DNA from: Bacillus sp. 491mf
Lineage (GTDB): Bacteria; Bacillota; Bacilli; Bacillales; Bacillaceae_G
Length of the DNA stretch: 64,000 nt
Direction of reading: 5' to 3'
Assembly: GCF_900112415.1 (NCBI RefSeq)
Contig: NZ_FOLV01000002.1
Location: forward strand, 266,940 to 330,939
A program made the translations under genes and the position numbers. The notes under the pieces were generated by a model, which was not told the DNA's origin, did no database searches, and was given only the letters and a program-made list of their open reading frames with translations. Every line of letters begins with the position of its first letter. Position 1 is the stretch's first letter. Positions 48,906 to 54,270 of the stretch are shown here, piece after piece.

Positions 48906-48948
48906 AATGTAACATAGAAAGAATGAATAAGAAGTGAGGAAAATCACA
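48906..48948 (-). promoter_or_regulatory. FNR-type promoter of the DUF1858-DUF438 operon
   Basis: On the minus strand, box TGTGATTTTCCTCACT (48933-48948) and -10 TACATT (48906-48911). The box centre is 29.5 bp from the -10 start, that is about -41.5 from the start site, the class II activator position. Confidence 0.75.
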
Positions 48949-49053
48949 CGTGTGATTTTTGAAAATTTGAAGAGAAAACTAGGGAATGTTAGTTGGGGTA
49001 CGCTGTGTAAAAAGAAGTACCAGAGACCGTGATAAAGAGGAATTTCTATCACG

Positions 49054-49152
49054 CTATTTACGGGCACTTAAGACTTCCATCTCAAGATTTTAAAGAAGCC
49101 AAAGAGATAGGTAGGGAATAGGTCCATAAAAGGCTGATTTAGGTGTCACTTT
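49054..49152 (+). repeat. Degenerate bcr1-like copy
   Basis: TTTACGGGCACTTAAGACTTCCATCTCAAGATTTTAAAG…GGTCCATAAAAGGCTGATTT…GTCACTTT keeps the block order of bcr1 with many changes. Confidence 0.45.
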
Positions 49153-49169
49153 GCAATGACAATTTCATG

Positions 49170-49212
49170 CGTGATATATCTCACAACATGAATGTCTATA
49201 TAACTTTACAAT
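49170..49212 (+). promoter_or_regulatory. FNR-type promoter of an interrupted micro-ORF
   Basis: Box CGTGATATATCTCACA (49170-49185) and -10 TACAAT (49207-49212), again 29.5 bp from box centre to -10 start. Confidence 0.75.
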
Positions 49213-49242
49213 GAGGATATAAATCGATAGGAGGGTTTAATT

Positions 49243-49338
49243 TTGATTAATCGTGATTTCGCTCACAGTATCTTTCCTCAATATAGTTTATCCTTAATAA
49301 AAAGCTTATCTCTAGTAATACCCCCGCCTCAAAATTAA
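49243..49338 (+). pseudogene. Micro-ORF interrupted by a bcr1-like element
   Basis: TTG start seven bases after ataggaggg, directly behind an FNR-type promoter. The frame begins MINRDFAHSIFPQYSL and then enters the repeat, ending after 31 codons. If the repeat and one TTTAT are removed, the frame continues (…FYIGIVLKLFVSFGGKVY) to a stop at 49454-49456, giving 34 residues with a hydrophobic C-terminal half. Confidence 0.5.
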
Positions 49339-49401
49339 GCGAAAGCAAAGAAGTTAGGTGGAAGATGAAGCAAATCCCAACTGATAAGAGTGTTACTTTA
49401 T
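49287..49401 (+). repeat. bcr1-like element, internally deleted, TTTAT-flanked
   Basis: 115 bp including TTTAT at both ends. It keeps the left block (CCCCCGCCTCAAAATTAAGC, AAAGCAAAGAAGTTAGGTGG) and the right end (CTGATAAGAGTGTTACTTTAT) but lacks the middle AGCCCGATTGGTT block. Confidence 0.75.
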
Positions 49402-49574
49402 TCTATATAGGTATTGTTCTCAAGCTCTTTGTTTCATTCGGTGGCAAAGTATATTAAAAAACTATTAGAAATATCACTTTTACAAAACTTTATAGGGTTA
49501 ATGGCATGAATTCTTTTGTAAGTATCAGTAAATGACATTGTTGATAAAAAACTTTGGGTAAGGGTGTTGAAAGA

Positions 49575-51490: not shown

Positions 51491-52726
51491 ATGAATAGAG
51501 AAATTAAGCTAACTGAAGATATATATTGGGTAGGGAAAATTGATGATAGGGAAGTTCCGTTTCATCGTTTAATCTTAGCAAAAGGAACAACTTATAACGC
51601 GTATCTTCTAAAAACTGAAAAACCAACAGTAATTGATACAGTTGACATAGAGTTTGGAAGAGAATTTGTAGAATATTTAAGTGAATTAATTGATCCACAA
51701 GACATTCAATATATCGTAGTGAATCATACAGAACCCGATCATTCAGGTGGATTGGCAGCATTAGCATCAAGAGCTACGAATGCTACAATTGTATGTACAG
51801 AAATCGCAGTACCTGAATTGCAGGAAATGTATAAATTGCATCACAGAAACTTTTTAGTTGTAAAAGATGGTGACACATTAGATATCGGCGGAAAGACATT
51901 GAAATTTAAAGAAACTCCATATCTTCATACAGAAGAAACAATGATCACGTATTGCATAGAGGATAAAATTTTATTCCCATGTGATATTTTCAGTACACAT
52001 GTAGCGAATTATGAATTCTTTAACGATGAAGCGAATGAAGATATTACGGAAGATTTCATAGGTTATTATAATGCGATTATTCACCCGCATAGAAGATATG
52101 TCAGAACGTTAATGGAAGCATTGAAAGACTTAGATGTTCAAATGATTGCTCCGTCTCATGGATACATTTTACGTCAAGATGTACAAAAATATATCGATTT
52201 ATATGCAGAAATGAGTAAAGATACAACACAAGGAAAAAAAGTAACTATTGTATATACAACCATTAAAAATAACACGAAAAAAATCGCGAATATCATTAAA
52301 GAAACATTTGAAGCAGAAAACATTGAAGTAACAGTATTTAATGCTGACAAATCAGAAAAAGCTATAATTCTAGAAAGTATTCAAGAAGCAGATGCAGTTT
52401 TCATCGGATCTTCAACTAAATACGCAGATATGATTGGAAACTTAGAAGAAATTTTAATAGAAATGAAGGAAATGAACTTAGAAGGGAAAATCGCAGCTGC
52501 ATTCGGATCATATGGTTGGAGTGGTGAGGCAATTGAGGTCGTACAAGATTACCTAAATGAAACAAACATGAATGTACAAAGTACATCAAATGTTATTAAG
52601 TCTACAGGTATGACTCATGTTGAATTCCCTATTCGTATAAGATTCTCTCCAAAGGATGAAGAGAAAACAAAACGAATTAAACATGCAACAACGTTTGTTA
52701 CAGATTTATTATTAAGTTCTATTTAA
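51491..52726 (+). CDS. Flavodiiron protein (NO/O2 reductase)
   Basis: 411 residues: N-terminal metallo-beta-lactamase-like domain with the di-iron ligands H79, E81, D83 (NHTEPDHSG), H146 (YLHTEET), D165 (FPCDIF) and H223 (PSHGYI), then a flavodoxin domain (about 250-400, KKVTIVYTTIKNNTKKIA). It reduces NO to N2O and/or O2 to water with electrons from rubredoxin. ATG after aggagga. It is first in an operon with its reductase and rubredoxin, under an FNR-type promoter. Confidence 0.94.
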   Translation: MNREIKLTEDIYWVGKIDDREVPFHRLILAKGTTYNAYLLKTEKPTVIDTVDIEFGREFVEYLSELIDPQDIQYIVVNHTEPDHSGGLAALASRATNATIVCTEIAVPELQEMYKLHHRNFLVVKDGDTLDIGGKTLKFKETPYLHTEETMITYCIEDKILFPCDIFSTHVANYEFFNDEANEDITEDFIGYYNAIIHPHRRYVRTLMEALKDLDVQMIAPSHGYILRQDVQKYIDLYAEMSKDTTQGKKVTIVYTTIKNNTKKIANIIKETFEAENIEVTVFNADKSEKAIILESIQEADAVFIGSSTKYADMIGNLEEILIEMKEMNLEGKIAAAFGSYGWSGEAIEVVQDYLNETNMNVQSTSNVIKSTGMTHVEFPIRIRFSPKDEEKTKRIKHATTFVTDLLLSSI

Positions 52727-52747
52727 TAGAAAAACGTAGGTGAAAAT

Positions 52748-53968
52748 ATGGAAAAGAATTTTGTTATTATCGGAAGTGGAGTAGCCGCTGTAAATGCTGC
52801 AAAGACAATTAGAGATCATGACAAGGATTCAAATATATTTATTTTTGGTGAAGAACCATCTTTACCTTATAACAGAATTAAACTGTCAAAAGAGTTATAT
52901 TCAGATTTACACAGTGAAAAAGTTTTAATCAAAAAAGAAAAATGGTACCAAAATAATAATATATCGGTTTTCACAAATACAAAAGTAGTAAAAATTGATA
53001 CAGAGCAGCAATATATTGTTACATCAAATCATGAAACAATTTCTTATTACAAACTATTAATTTGTACCGGTGCAAATAATAGAAGGCTACCAGTAGGTGG
53101 AATAAATAAAAAAGGTGTCTTTACGATTAGAGACATGCAGGAAGCGGATAACTTTAAAGCATGTTTAGAAGATAAAAAGCATGTTGTAAACATTGGTGGA
53201 GGCGTACAAGGATTAGAAACAGCTTGGTCTATGATGAAAGCTGGCAAACAAGTATCCATTGTAGAAGTTGCCGCTACACTAATGGGAAGACAATTAGATG
53301 AAAAAGTTTCTCTTCTATTAAAAGAAAAAATTGAAAGTGCCGGAGTAAAAGTATATGTAAATACGACTATTGATTCTATTCTTGGAGAAGAAGTAGTAAC
53401 TGGAATGAAAGTGAATGGTGAACAACGAATAGATTGTGATAGTGTTGTGTATTCAATTGGGGTCACTCCTAACATTTCTTTAGTAAACAATACTCCTATT
53501 CATGTAAATAGAGGCATTATTGTCAATGAGAAGATGGAAACGAATGTGGAATCTGTATATGCTGCTGGGGATGTAGCAGAAGTAAACGGTGAAATTGGCG
53601 GACTATGGGGACGAGCAATGGATCAAGGGAAAATTGCCGGAAGTAATATGGTTTCTAATCCTGCAATTTATAAGGAAGCAATTTCAACTACTATTTTTAA
53701 TGCGTTCGATGTATCTTTATTCTCGATTGGATTCGTTGATGAGAAACAATGTGATACAACTATCGTTGAAGAAGATGGTAAAGAGAAGTATACAAGGTTA
53801 TTTATCAAAGATAATAAAATAGTAGGTGTCATCTCATTAGAAGGAGTTGCAGCATCCATTCCTTACAAGTCTGCTATTGAAAAGCAGGTATCATTAGAAG
53901 AGATTGATATGAAAAATACGAATGTAAGTGAAATAATGAGCAAGGTAAAAGAGAAACTGAAATCTTAA
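52748..53968 (+). CDS. FAD-dependent NAD(P)H:rubredoxin reductase (NorW-like)
   Basis: 406 residues with an N-terminal FAD site (FVIIGSGVAAVNAAKTI), a central NAD(P) site (VVNIGGGVQGLETAWSMM) and the FAD-contact motif VYAAGDVAEV. It should pass electrons from NAD(P)H to the rubredoxin encoded next. Only 21 bp separate it from the flavodiiron gene. Confidence 0.9.
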   Translation: MEKNFVIIGSGVAAVNAAKTIRDHDKDSNIFIFGEEPSLPYNRIKLSKELYSDLHSEKVLIKKEKWYQNNNISVFTNTKVVKIDTEQQYIVTSNHETISYYKLLICTGANNRRLPVGGINKKGVFTIRDMQEADNFKACLEDKKHVVNIGGGVQGLETAWSMMKAGKQVSIVEVAATLMGRQLDEKVSLLLKEKIESAGVKVYVNTTIDSILGEEVVTGMKVNGEQRIDCDSVVYSIGVTPNISLVNNTPIHVNRGIIVNEKMETNVESVYAAGDVAEVNGEIGGLWGRAMDQGKIAGSNMVSNPAIYKEAISTTIFNAFDVSLFSIGFVDEKQCDTTIVEEDGKEKYTRLFIKDNKIVGVISLEGVAASIPYKSAIEKQVSLEEIDMKNTNVSEIMSKVKEKLKS

Positions 53969-53994
53969 TATAATAATAGAAAGAGGACATTATA

Positions 53995-54159
53995 ATGAAA
54001 AAATATATTTGCTTACCATGTGGCTATATTTATGATCCAGAAGTTGGAGATCCGGATGAAGATGTAGAACCAGGAACAAGTTTTGAAGATTTACCAGAAG
54101 ATTGGGTGTGTCCAGTATGTGGAGAAGATACTGAACATTTTGCACCGGTAGAGGAATAG
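53995..54159 (+). CDS. Rubredoxin
   Basis: 54 residues with both iron knuckles, CLPCGYIYDPEVGDPD and WVCPVCGEDTEHF, giving Cys4 iron ligation. It shuttles electrons between the reductase and the flavodiiron protein. aagagga ribosome site; third gene of the operon, followed by a terminator. Too short for many gene finders. Confidence 0.95.
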   Translation: MKKYICLPCGYIYDPEVGDPDEDVEPGTSFEDLPEDWVCPVCGEDTEHFAPVEE

Positions 54160-54165
54160 CAAAAG

Positions 54166-54209
54166 AAAAAGTAACGAGAAGGTTATATAATTTCTCGTTA
54201 CTTTTTTAT
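54166..54209 (+). terminator. Terminator of the flavodiiron operon
   Basis: AAAAAGTAACGAGAA / TTCTCGTTACTTTTT stem-loop. Confidence 0.95.
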
Positions 54210-54227
54210 ATGAAAAGAATTTTTTGA

Positions 54228-54270
54228 TGTGATTTAGGTCACTGGTTTAGCTTTTAGGAAGAGATATAAT
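54228..54270 (+). promoter_or_regulatory. FNR-type promoter of the CRP/FNR gene
   Basis: Box TGTGATTTAGGTCACT (54228-54243) and -10 TATAAT (54265-54270), box centre 29.5 bp before the -10 start. It implies activation, possibly autogenous, of the regulator gene. Confidence 0.75.

What the first reader, a model, noticed from the sequence alone, without database searches (positions are those of the whole stretch)
48906..54270. Four FNR-type promoters with identical geometry define a local low-oxygen/NO regulon
TGTGA-N6-TCACA-like boxes at 48933 (minus), 49170, 51405 and 54228 each lie with their centre 29.5 bp before the first base of a -10 hexamer (TACATT, TACAAT, TATAAT, TATAAT), i.e. about -41.5. 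They serve DUF1858-DUF438, a micro-ORF, the flavodiiron/reductase/rubredoxin operon and the CRP/FNR gene itself. Such exact repetition is unlikely by chance and ties iron/NO-handling proteins of unknown role (DUF438-hemerythrin-PAS, DUF1858) to NO/O2 reduction. The box at 51405 has a weak right half.
Basis: partly seen in the sequence, partly recalled or inferred. Interest (0 to 1): 0.78.

Follow-up and report, generated by a model that had tools for sequence, protein, structure and literature searches.

The report
CRP/FNR promoters for nitric-oxide-defence genes
A group of neighbouring genes that probably help a soil bacterium cope with low oxygen and nitric oxide carries switch sites of the same design at the same exact spacing, the same design is found at matching genes of distant relatives, and one site that looked faulty turns out to be a conserved special version.

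Summary
The geometry is real. Boxes at 48933(-), 49170, 51405 and 54228 each lie exactly 29.5 bp before a -10 hexamer. Four boxes of at least 9/10 have this spacing, against a mean of 0.075 in simulated sequence.
Relatives support function. Such boxes precede DUF438 in 4 of 4 relatives, the regulator gene in 3 of 15 and YwiC in 3 of 7. The 'weak right half' at 51405 is the conserved form: 14 of 14 flavodiiron promoters aligned carry the box, 13 with TCCTC/TCCTT in place of TCACA, 12 at the exact spacing. Seven relatives have 66 genome-wide sites at this spacing and 8 at one 4 bp shorter; genes behind them include hmp, ric, hcp, nirB and narK.
The regulator at 54553 is not classical Bacillus Fnr: it lacks the C-terminal cysteines. 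All 12 of 398 genomes with the flavodiiron gene have it.
I read this as a CRP/FNR class II nitrogen-oxide/low-oxygen regulon with a dedicated, unnamed regulator. Binding, signal and transcription starts are untested. The 'micro-ORF' unit is more likely a YwiC promoter.

The parts
48933..48948 (-). CRP/FNR-type box TGTGATTTTCCTCACT of the DUF1858-DUF438 unit; -10 TACATT at 48911-48906
   Evidence: box aligned in 3 relatives with DUF438 at 85-86% identity
48886..48900 (-). Fur-like 7-1-7 element CGAGAATTAATATCA just after the -10 (11/14; weak in the window itself)
   Evidence: shuffle P 0.058 here; 0.002, 0.006, 0.008 and 0.040 in four relatives; 24 regions tested, no correction
48637..48867 (-). 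DUF1858 protein gene
   Evidence: Pfam PF08984
47395..48624 (-). DUF438-hemerythrin-PAS protein gene
   Evidence: Pfam PF04282, PF01814, PF13596
49170..49185 (+). CRP/FNR-type box CGTGATATATCTCACA; -10 TACAAT 49207-49212
49252..49267 (+).
49578..50297 (+). YwiC-like protein gene, first long ORF downstream of 49170/49252
   Evidence: Pfam PF14256; boxes upstream of YwiC in 3 of 7 relatives
50623..51330 (+). SAM-dependent methyltransferase gene; no well-spaced box of its own here; next to the regulator gene in genome G340
51405..51420 (+). Asymmetric box TGTGATTCAAGTCCTC; -10 TATAAT 51442-51447; just after a terminator-like hairpin (about 51345-51395, read from sequence)
   Evidence: aligned in 14 flavodiiron promoters
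51491..52726 (+). Flavodiiron protein (A-type flavoprotein, NorV-like core); H79-x-E-x-D-H motif present
52748..53968 (+). NADH:rubredoxin/flavorubredoxin reductase-like flavoprotein
53995..54159 (+). Rubredoxin
   Evidence: Pfam PF00301; NCBIfam NF045768 above cut-off
54228..54243 (+). Box TGTGATTTAGGTCACT of the regulator gene; -10 TATAAT 54265-54270; behind a terminator-like hairpin (54169-54208, read from sequence)
   Evidence: box at the regulator gene in 3 of 15 relatives
54293..54448 (+). Structured dispersed repeat lying between the promoter and the regulator gene
   Evidence: parts recur at 33777-34055, 5236-5271, 7135-7203; fold -56.9 kcal/mol, z -5.23 against 200 shuffles
54553..55263 (+). 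CRP/FNR-family regulator; Cys5, Cys14 and Cys113 conserved, no C-terminal Fe-S motif

Best explanation
The region is a small CRP/FNR-type regulon with class II promoters: a dimer binds a box centred near -41.5 and recruits RNA polymerase to a -10 that has no good -35. The units are DUF1858-DUF438 (probable di-iron repair or sensing), YwiC (two boxes), the flavodiiron-reductase-rubredoxin operon (NO or O2 reduction) and the gene of a dedicated CRP/FNR regulator, which is probably autoregulated. The most likely signals are low oxygen and nitrogen oxides, read by the dedicated regulator through conserved cysteines and, at the symmetric boxes, also by a chromosomal Fnr (not seen in the window). 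Shown by sequence: sites, spacing, conservation, gene content, co-occurrence. Inferred: binding, activation, signal, enzyme activity, autoregulation.
For: Spacing beyond chance. None of the five box-associated -10 hexamers is in the sigma-70-type promoter list of the stretch. All 14 flavodiiron promoters aligned have a box of this kind, 12 of 14 with the -10 at the exact place and 2 shifted by 1 bp. DUF438: box in the window and in 4 of 4 relatives found among 39 genomes, -10 at the exact place in 4 of these 5, lost in G112 by a 7-bp gap. Regulator gene: box at the exact spacing in the window, G001, G002 and G036 (3 of 15 relatives). YwiC: 3 of 7 relatives, one of them 1 bp off. Flavodiiron genes (E<=1e-80) in 12 of 398 genomes, all 12 among the 14 with the regulator (E<=1e-50). 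The order flavodiiron-reductase-rubredoxin-regulator on one strand in 10 of 15 regulator loci. Seven relatives: 66 genome-wide sites at this spacing, 8 at a spacing 4 bp shorter; reversed patterns 0 and 5. Genes behind the sites classified (17 of 23 looked at) include nirB, narK, hcp, hmp, ric, hemerythrins, YwiC, adhE and flavocytochrome c.
Against: No expression or binding data. The species is not resolved and its genome is not held, so the window's own genome-wide regulon is unseen. The 51405 box is 7/10 and not significant alone. At the plain criterion (>=8/10 and a spaced -10) no flavodiiron promoter has a box; only G340 meets it. The asymmetric form, 6-7/10, was recognised by eye and counted with patterns drawn from those promoters, and the genomes are related. 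12 of 15 regulator loci have no well-spaced box within 400 bp of the regulator gene; in 9 of them it follows rubredoxin and may share the operon promoter. Four of seven relatives show no box >=8/10 in the 450 bp before their YwiC homologue. DUF1858-DUF438 on two lactic-acid-bacterial plasmids has no such box. G145, G112 and G075 keep the DUF438 box but lack the regulator and a close flavodiiron gene, so the regulator is not needed for all boxes. Of 23 sites looked at, 2 have no gene behind them and others precede genes without a nitrogen-oxide link. Searches scored at most 7 and 4 candidates per genome.
Confidence: 0.72

Rival explanations
1. All boxes are ordinary targets of chromosomal Fnr ([4Fe-4S], C-terminal cysteines); the regulator at 54553 is just another Fnr target and does something else.
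For: The DUF438 box persists in G145, G112 and G075, which lack the 54553 orthologue at E<=1e-60; B. cereus Fnr is a [4Fe-4S] protein with C-terminal cysteines (PMC3520743, passages); an Fnr-like paralogue with a C-terminal CxxCxxxxC exists in G001; genome-wide sites have the same form. The RETISR recognition helix of 54553 is shared by the G112 paralogue, so the helix does not tell the two apart.
Against: All 12 genomes of 398 with the flavodiiron gene also have the 54553 orthologue, mostly in the same gene run. The flavodiiron box keeps an asymmetric right half in 13 of 14 genomes; whether Fnr sites elsewhere can be asymmetric was not tested, since the pattern demanded TCAC. The regulator gene has a box of its own in four genomes, the window included.
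Confidence: 0.3
2. The boxes are redox/metal-stress targets of an FLP-like CRP/FNR protein (cysteine thiol switch), not a low-oxygen/NO regulon; flavodiiron protein acts as an O2 or peroxide scavenger and DUF438 in iron-sulfur repair.
For: The regulator keeps an N-terminal Cys, Cys14 and Cys113 rather than an Fnr motif. Plasmid-borne relatives (331 records at E<=1e-30, all under 60% identity) are mostly in Enterococcus, Leuconostoc, Listeria and Ligilactobacillus; the L. salivarius one sits by a Dps-like and a heavy-metal ATPase gene. DUF1858-DUF438 lies near a heavy-metal ATPase gene in L. lactis and beside an iron-sulfur assembly gene in L. fermentum.
Against: The plasmid relatives are distant (35.9-48.9% in the ten rows listed), and genome-wide sites with the same spacing include narK, nirB, hmp, ric and hcp.
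Confidence: 0.3
3. Chance arrangement of degenerate palindromes before AT-rich -10-like hexamers.
For: TGTGA-N6-TCACA with 2 mismatches is not enriched in the window; 51405 alone is within chance.
Confidence: 0.03

Closest known systems
Bacillus Fnr regulon (B. subtilis and B. cereus Fnr)
   Same: TGTGA-N6-TCACA boxes (consensus as quoted in PMC8151001, passages) at about -41.5 (recalled for B. subtilis); narK, nirB and other anaerobic genes of relatives share the promoter form.
   Different: The regulator in the window lacks the C-terminal cysteines of Fnr; the flavodiiron box is asymmetric.
HcpR / DNR / NnrR dedicated FNR-like nitrogen-oxide regulators
   Same: FNR-like regulators linked to nitrogen-oxide enzymes; they lack the canonical FNR cysteine motif (PMC1274295, passages).
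   Different: Those passages tie them to hcp, nir and nor genes; here the target is a flavodiiron operon in Bacilli and three cysteines are conserved. No tree was built to place it.
NorVW of E. coli
   Same: Flavodiiron core and NADH reductase-like partner; the closest solved chains are E. coli flavorubredoxin (4d02; organism recalled).
   Different: Rubredoxin is a separate protein, and the promoter is CRP/FNR-type, not NorR-type (NorR control of norVW: PMC1274295, passages). NCBIfam NorV scores lie far below the cut-off (285.6 against 635).
FLP of lactobacilli and Lactococcus FlpA/FlpB (recalled)
   Same: CRP/FNR fold with one N-terminal and one central cysteine (recalled for FLP); relatives on lactic-acid-bacterial plasmids.
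   Different: Low identity to the plasmid relatives; FLP itself was not compared.
RIC / YtfE / ScdA iron-sulfur repair proteins
   Same: Hemerythrin-like domain protein under the same promoter form; a ric gene of G002 has such a box.
   Different: DUF1858 and DUF438-hemerythrin-PAS are separate proteins and match no NCBIfam model at E<=1e-5.

Membership tests
CRP/FNR class II promoter | Dyad half-sites TGTGA / TCACA | tested here: met
   9/10 at 48933, 49170, 49252, 54228; only 7/10 at 51405
CRP/FNR class II promoter | Box centre about -41.5, fixed distance to the -10 | tested here: met
   29.5 bp to the -10 at all five; spacing kept in relatives
CRP/FNR class II promoter | Transcription start and activator dependence | not testable with these tools
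   Needs RNA data
Canonical Bacillus Fnr (protein 54553) | C-terminal cysteine motif for [4Fe-4S] | tested here: not met
   Cysteines only at 5, 14, 87, 89, 96, 113, 169 of 236; alignment; motif in PMC3520743 passages
cAMP-binding CRP (protein 54553) | Conserved Arg of the phosphate-binding cassette (RSA; recalled) | tested here: not met
   Window reads SNFSA there; alignment
FLP-like thiol-switch regulators | N-terminal and central cysteine forming a disulfide (recalled) | tested here: inconclusive
   A Cys near the N-terminus (5-7), Cys14 and Cys113 kept in the 16 aligned sequences; disulfide not testable
Flavodiiron NO/O2 reductase | Metallo-beta-lactamase-like plus flavodoxin domains with di-iron ligand motifs | tested here: met
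   PF19583 and PF00258; H79TEPDH and the later His/Asp stretches; activity not testable
RIC iron-sulfur repair family (DUF438 protein) | NCBIfam RIC/ScdA model match | tested here: not met
   No NCBIfam match at E<=1e-5
Fur-controlled promoter | 7-1-7 Fur box near the start site | tested here: inconclusive
   11/14 at DUF1858/438 in the window (P 0.058); 11-12/14 in 4 relatives; >=12/14 in 7 of 14 flavodiiron promoters, not in the window (single-base shuffles, no correction for 24 regions)

The most novel reading that the evidence does not exclude
Bacilli have an undescribed CRP/FNR subfamily dedicated to flavodiiron NO/O2 reductase operons. It senses through three conserved cysteines and acts on an asymmetric operator (TkTGATTCAAATCCTC) whose fixed right half sets the threshold or direction of activation. 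In many genomes a Fur operator near the start site adds iron or NO control, so DUF1858-DUF438 and YwiC become parts of one iron/nitrogen-oxide defence programme.
Probability: 0.35. Interest if true: 0.65.

Novelty: new member of a known kind. Interest (0 to 1): 0.5.

Why it matters
It gives a testable role to DUF438-hemerythrin-PAS, DUF1858 and YwiC proteins of unknown function by placing them under the same conserved switch as a flavodiiron NO/O2 reductase. It points to a dedicated regulator for that reductase in Bacilli; PMC8151001 reports that B. cereus genome analysis found no homologues of known NO reductases or of regulators such as NsrR (abstract). The conserved asymmetric operator offers a natural case for asking why one half-site of a CRP/FNR box is held away from consensus.

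Tried and rejected
Whole-genome scan of the window's own assembly: not held. Naming the organism: no near match of 47300-56500 to any plasmid, and the one genome-contig scan gave five regulator relatives, best Mesobacillus at 63-64%; a Bacillus cereus-group origin is my recollection from gene content and repeats, not a tool result. Rfam on 46500-56500: nothing at the gathering scores. Micro-ORF as a gene: not accepted, because the frame from TTG 49243 (31 codons) holds the second box and ends in a repeat (49314-49361), and the next gene, YwiC, has such boxes in some relatives; the peptide itself was not searched, so a real small protein is not excluded. The 20-bp palindrome AAAATCACACGTGTGATTTT (48941-48960) overlapping the 48933 box was considered as a separate operator; it is not kept in three relatives. 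The terminator scan did not list the two hairpins named in parts (loops of at most 8), so these rest on reading the sequence. The flavodiiron signature as a wider regulon: TKTGATTYRARTCCTY gives 44 matches in 41 of 398 genomes and about 23 for the reversed pattern (my count). Of 30 loci inspected, 7 precede a flavodiiron gene and all 7 have TAnnnT at the right place; none of the other 23 has, so elsewhere it is mostly chance. Papers: the searches showed no paper whose listing describes this regulator or operator. Most were seen as listings only; of PMC1274295 and PMC3520743 I saw passages, of PMC8151001 the abstract, passages and the Results section. Reents 2006 on the B. subtilis Fnr regulon is not held. 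No structure was predicted and no tree was built.

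
Full report
1. The observation. The four boxes and -10 hexamers are present, each with 29.5 bp between box centre and -10. A fifth box at 49252 with TATCCT at 49289 fits the same rule. Against TGTGA-N6-TCACA they score 9 (48933), 9 (49170), 7 (51405), 9 (54228) and 9 (49252) of 10. With the spacing fixed, four boxes of >=9/10 with a -10 of >=4/6 are seen against a mean of 0.075 and maximum of 2 in 200 simulated sequences. The motif alone, at 2 mismatches, is not enriched in the window, and 51405 alone is within chance.

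2. The genes. Pfam gives DUF438-hemerythrin-PAS, DUF1858, YwiC, a methyltransferase, flavodiiron protein, rubredoxin reductase-like flavoprotein, rubredoxin, a CRP/FNR regulator and a nitroreductase. The flavodiiron protein is nearest in sequence to anaerobic nitric oxide reductase flavorubredoxin and to 1ycf, a nitric oxide reductase, among solved structures and has the H-x-E-x-D-H motif. Hairpins with T-runs precede the 51405 and 54228 boxes (read from sequence; not listed by the scan), which fits separate units. None of the five box-associated -10s is in the sigma-70-type promoter list, which fits activator need.

3. Relatives. Loci around the regulator at 54553 were fetched from 15 genomes: the 14 with a match (G001 among them) and G002. 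Identity is 62-68% in 14 of the 15 and 50% in G012. In 10 of the 15 it ends the order flavodiiron-reductase-rubredoxin-regulator on one strand; G036 has flavodiiron-regulator; G351 has rubredoxin-regulator near a contig end; G340 has methyltransferase-regulator divergent from DUF438; in G001 and G012 no flavodiiron gene lies nearby. Over 398 genomes of the class, 14 have the regulator (E<=1e-50) and 12 the flavodiiron gene (E<=1e-80), all 12 within the 14. These calls scored at most 7 and 4 candidates per genome, and the genomes are related, so 12 is not a count of independent events.

4. The flavodiiron promoter. In the window and 13 further genomes (the 12, plus G002) the stretch before the gene carries T(G/T)TGATT followed by TCCTC (12), TCCTT (1) or the symmetric TCACA (1, G340). 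The -10 lies at the exact place in 12 of 14 and 1 bp further in G351 and G227. Against symmetric TGTGA-N6-TCACA most of these boxes score only 6-7 of 10, so the plain scan did not find them; I saw the likeness by eye and then counted with patterns drawn from these promoters. As a free-standing word the signature is mostly chance elsewhere.

5. Other promoters. DUF438: a search of 39 genomes gave four with the protein. The box aligns in G145, G112 and G075, which have DUF438 at 85-86% but no 54553 orthologue at E<=1e-60 and no close flavodiiron gene; G112 has lost the -10 to a 7-bp gap. G340 has TGTGATTTAAATCAAA with TATGAT before DUF438. Regulator gene: boxes at the exact spacing in G001, G002 and G036; the other 12 loci have none within 400 bp, 9 of them with the gene just behind rubredoxin. 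YwiC: boxes of 9/10 in G036, G002 and G001, the last 1 bp off, but none of >=8/10 within 450 bp of the more distant YwiC homologues of G112, G145, G075 and G340. DUF1858 sits directly before DUF438 on plasmids of Lactococcus lactis and Limosilactobacillus fermentum, in the latter after a metal-sulfur cluster assembly factor; no well-spaced box was found there.

6. Genome-wide. TGTGA-N6-TCAC-N22-TANNNT gives 66 matches in seven relatives (G145 9, G112 10, G075 9, G340 5, G002 13, G001 10, G036 10), none for the reversed pattern. With a gap 4 bp shorter there are 8, and 5 reversed. I looked behind 23 of the 66: all 5 of G340, 8 of 9 of G145 (the ninth is the DUF438 site above), 6 of 13 of G002 and 4 of 10 of G036, the last two sets chosen by me. 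Two had no gene behind them. 17 of the genes were classified: pyruvate:ferredoxin oxidoreductase, flavocytochrome c and two further FAD-binding flavoproteins, NarK, AdhE, Hcp, two flavohaemoglobins (one by Pfam domains only), RIC, NirB, three hemerythrins, two YwiC and a radical SAM protein; one more is the G340 flavodiiron gene. Three were not classified, and several of those classified have no nitrogen-oxide link.

7. Regulator. Cys14 and Cys113 are invariant and a Cys lies near the N-terminus (position 5-7) in the 16 aligned sequences; the C-terminal Fe-S motif of Bacillus Fnr is absent and the cAMP-site arginine (recalled) is replaced (Fnr motif from PMC3520743 passages). NCBIfam gives only matches below the cut-off, to CRP, FnrL, FtrB and others. 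Its nearest plasmid relatives are in Paraclostridium (48-49%) and then lactic acid bacteria. Beside the Paraclostridium gene, a cupin gene has TTTGATTATAATCACA with TATAAT at the exact spacing. The recognition-helix letters RETISR are shared with another CRP/FNR protein of G112, so they do not settle which protein binds.

8. Fur. A 7-1-7 Fur-like element lies just after the -10 of DUF438 in five genomes (11-12 of 14; window 11, P 0.058), and 51 bp from the box start in 6 of 14 flavodiiron promoters (13 of 14), with a seventh (G036) upstream of its box; it is absent from the window's flavodiiron promoter (single-base shuffles, 24 regions, no correction). This is a lead, not a result.

9. Repeat in the leader. 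Between 54293 and 54448 a structured repeat with other copies in the window (z -5.23) separates promoter and regulator gene, giving 309 bp from box to start codon against 78-120 bp in the three relatives with a regulator-gene box. A similar repeat lies on a Pseudalkalibacillus plasmid. Whether transcription passes through it is unknown.

10. Judgement. The promoters are very probably real CRP/FNR class II promoters. The nitrogen-oxide/low-oxygen reading is likely from gene content and from the company of hmp, ric, hcp, nirB and narK in relatives, but no signal was tested. The kind of system is known; the dedicated regulator and its asymmetric box look undescribed in the papers I could search (calls listed in Tried and rejected).

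Noticed in passing
50380-50549 and 55310-55424: Two direct copies of a dispersed repeat bracket the methyltransferase-flavodiiron-regulator block; they might mark how the block arrived or moved.
   Followed up: partly
47188-47246 and 56339-56397: 80% identical 59-bp repeat: the second copy lies in the 3' part of the nitroreductase gene, the first outside any long ORF, as if a remnant of a duplicated gene end flanks the whole 9 kb.
   Followed up: no
48941-48960: Perfect 20-bp palindrome AAAATCACACGTGTGATTTT overlapping the 48933 box; not kept in three relatives.
   Followed up: partly
51455-51471: Dyad TTGTTA-AGAGA-TAACAA just after the flavodiiron -10; six relatives have a Fur-like TGATAA-(3)-TTATCA near this place.
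   Followed up: partly
49145-49162: Inverted repeat TGTCA-N8-TGACA right before the 49170 box; no regulator assigned.
   Followed up: no
L142 7051-7470: In Paraclostridium bifermentans a cupin gene beside the regulator relative has TTTGATTATAATCACA with TATAAT at the exact spacing.
   Followed up: partly
L041 11132-11743 and L042 11228-11806: In G112 and G075 a different CRP/FNR gene (26-27% to the window's regulator) sits next to the DUF438 gene.
   Followed up: partly
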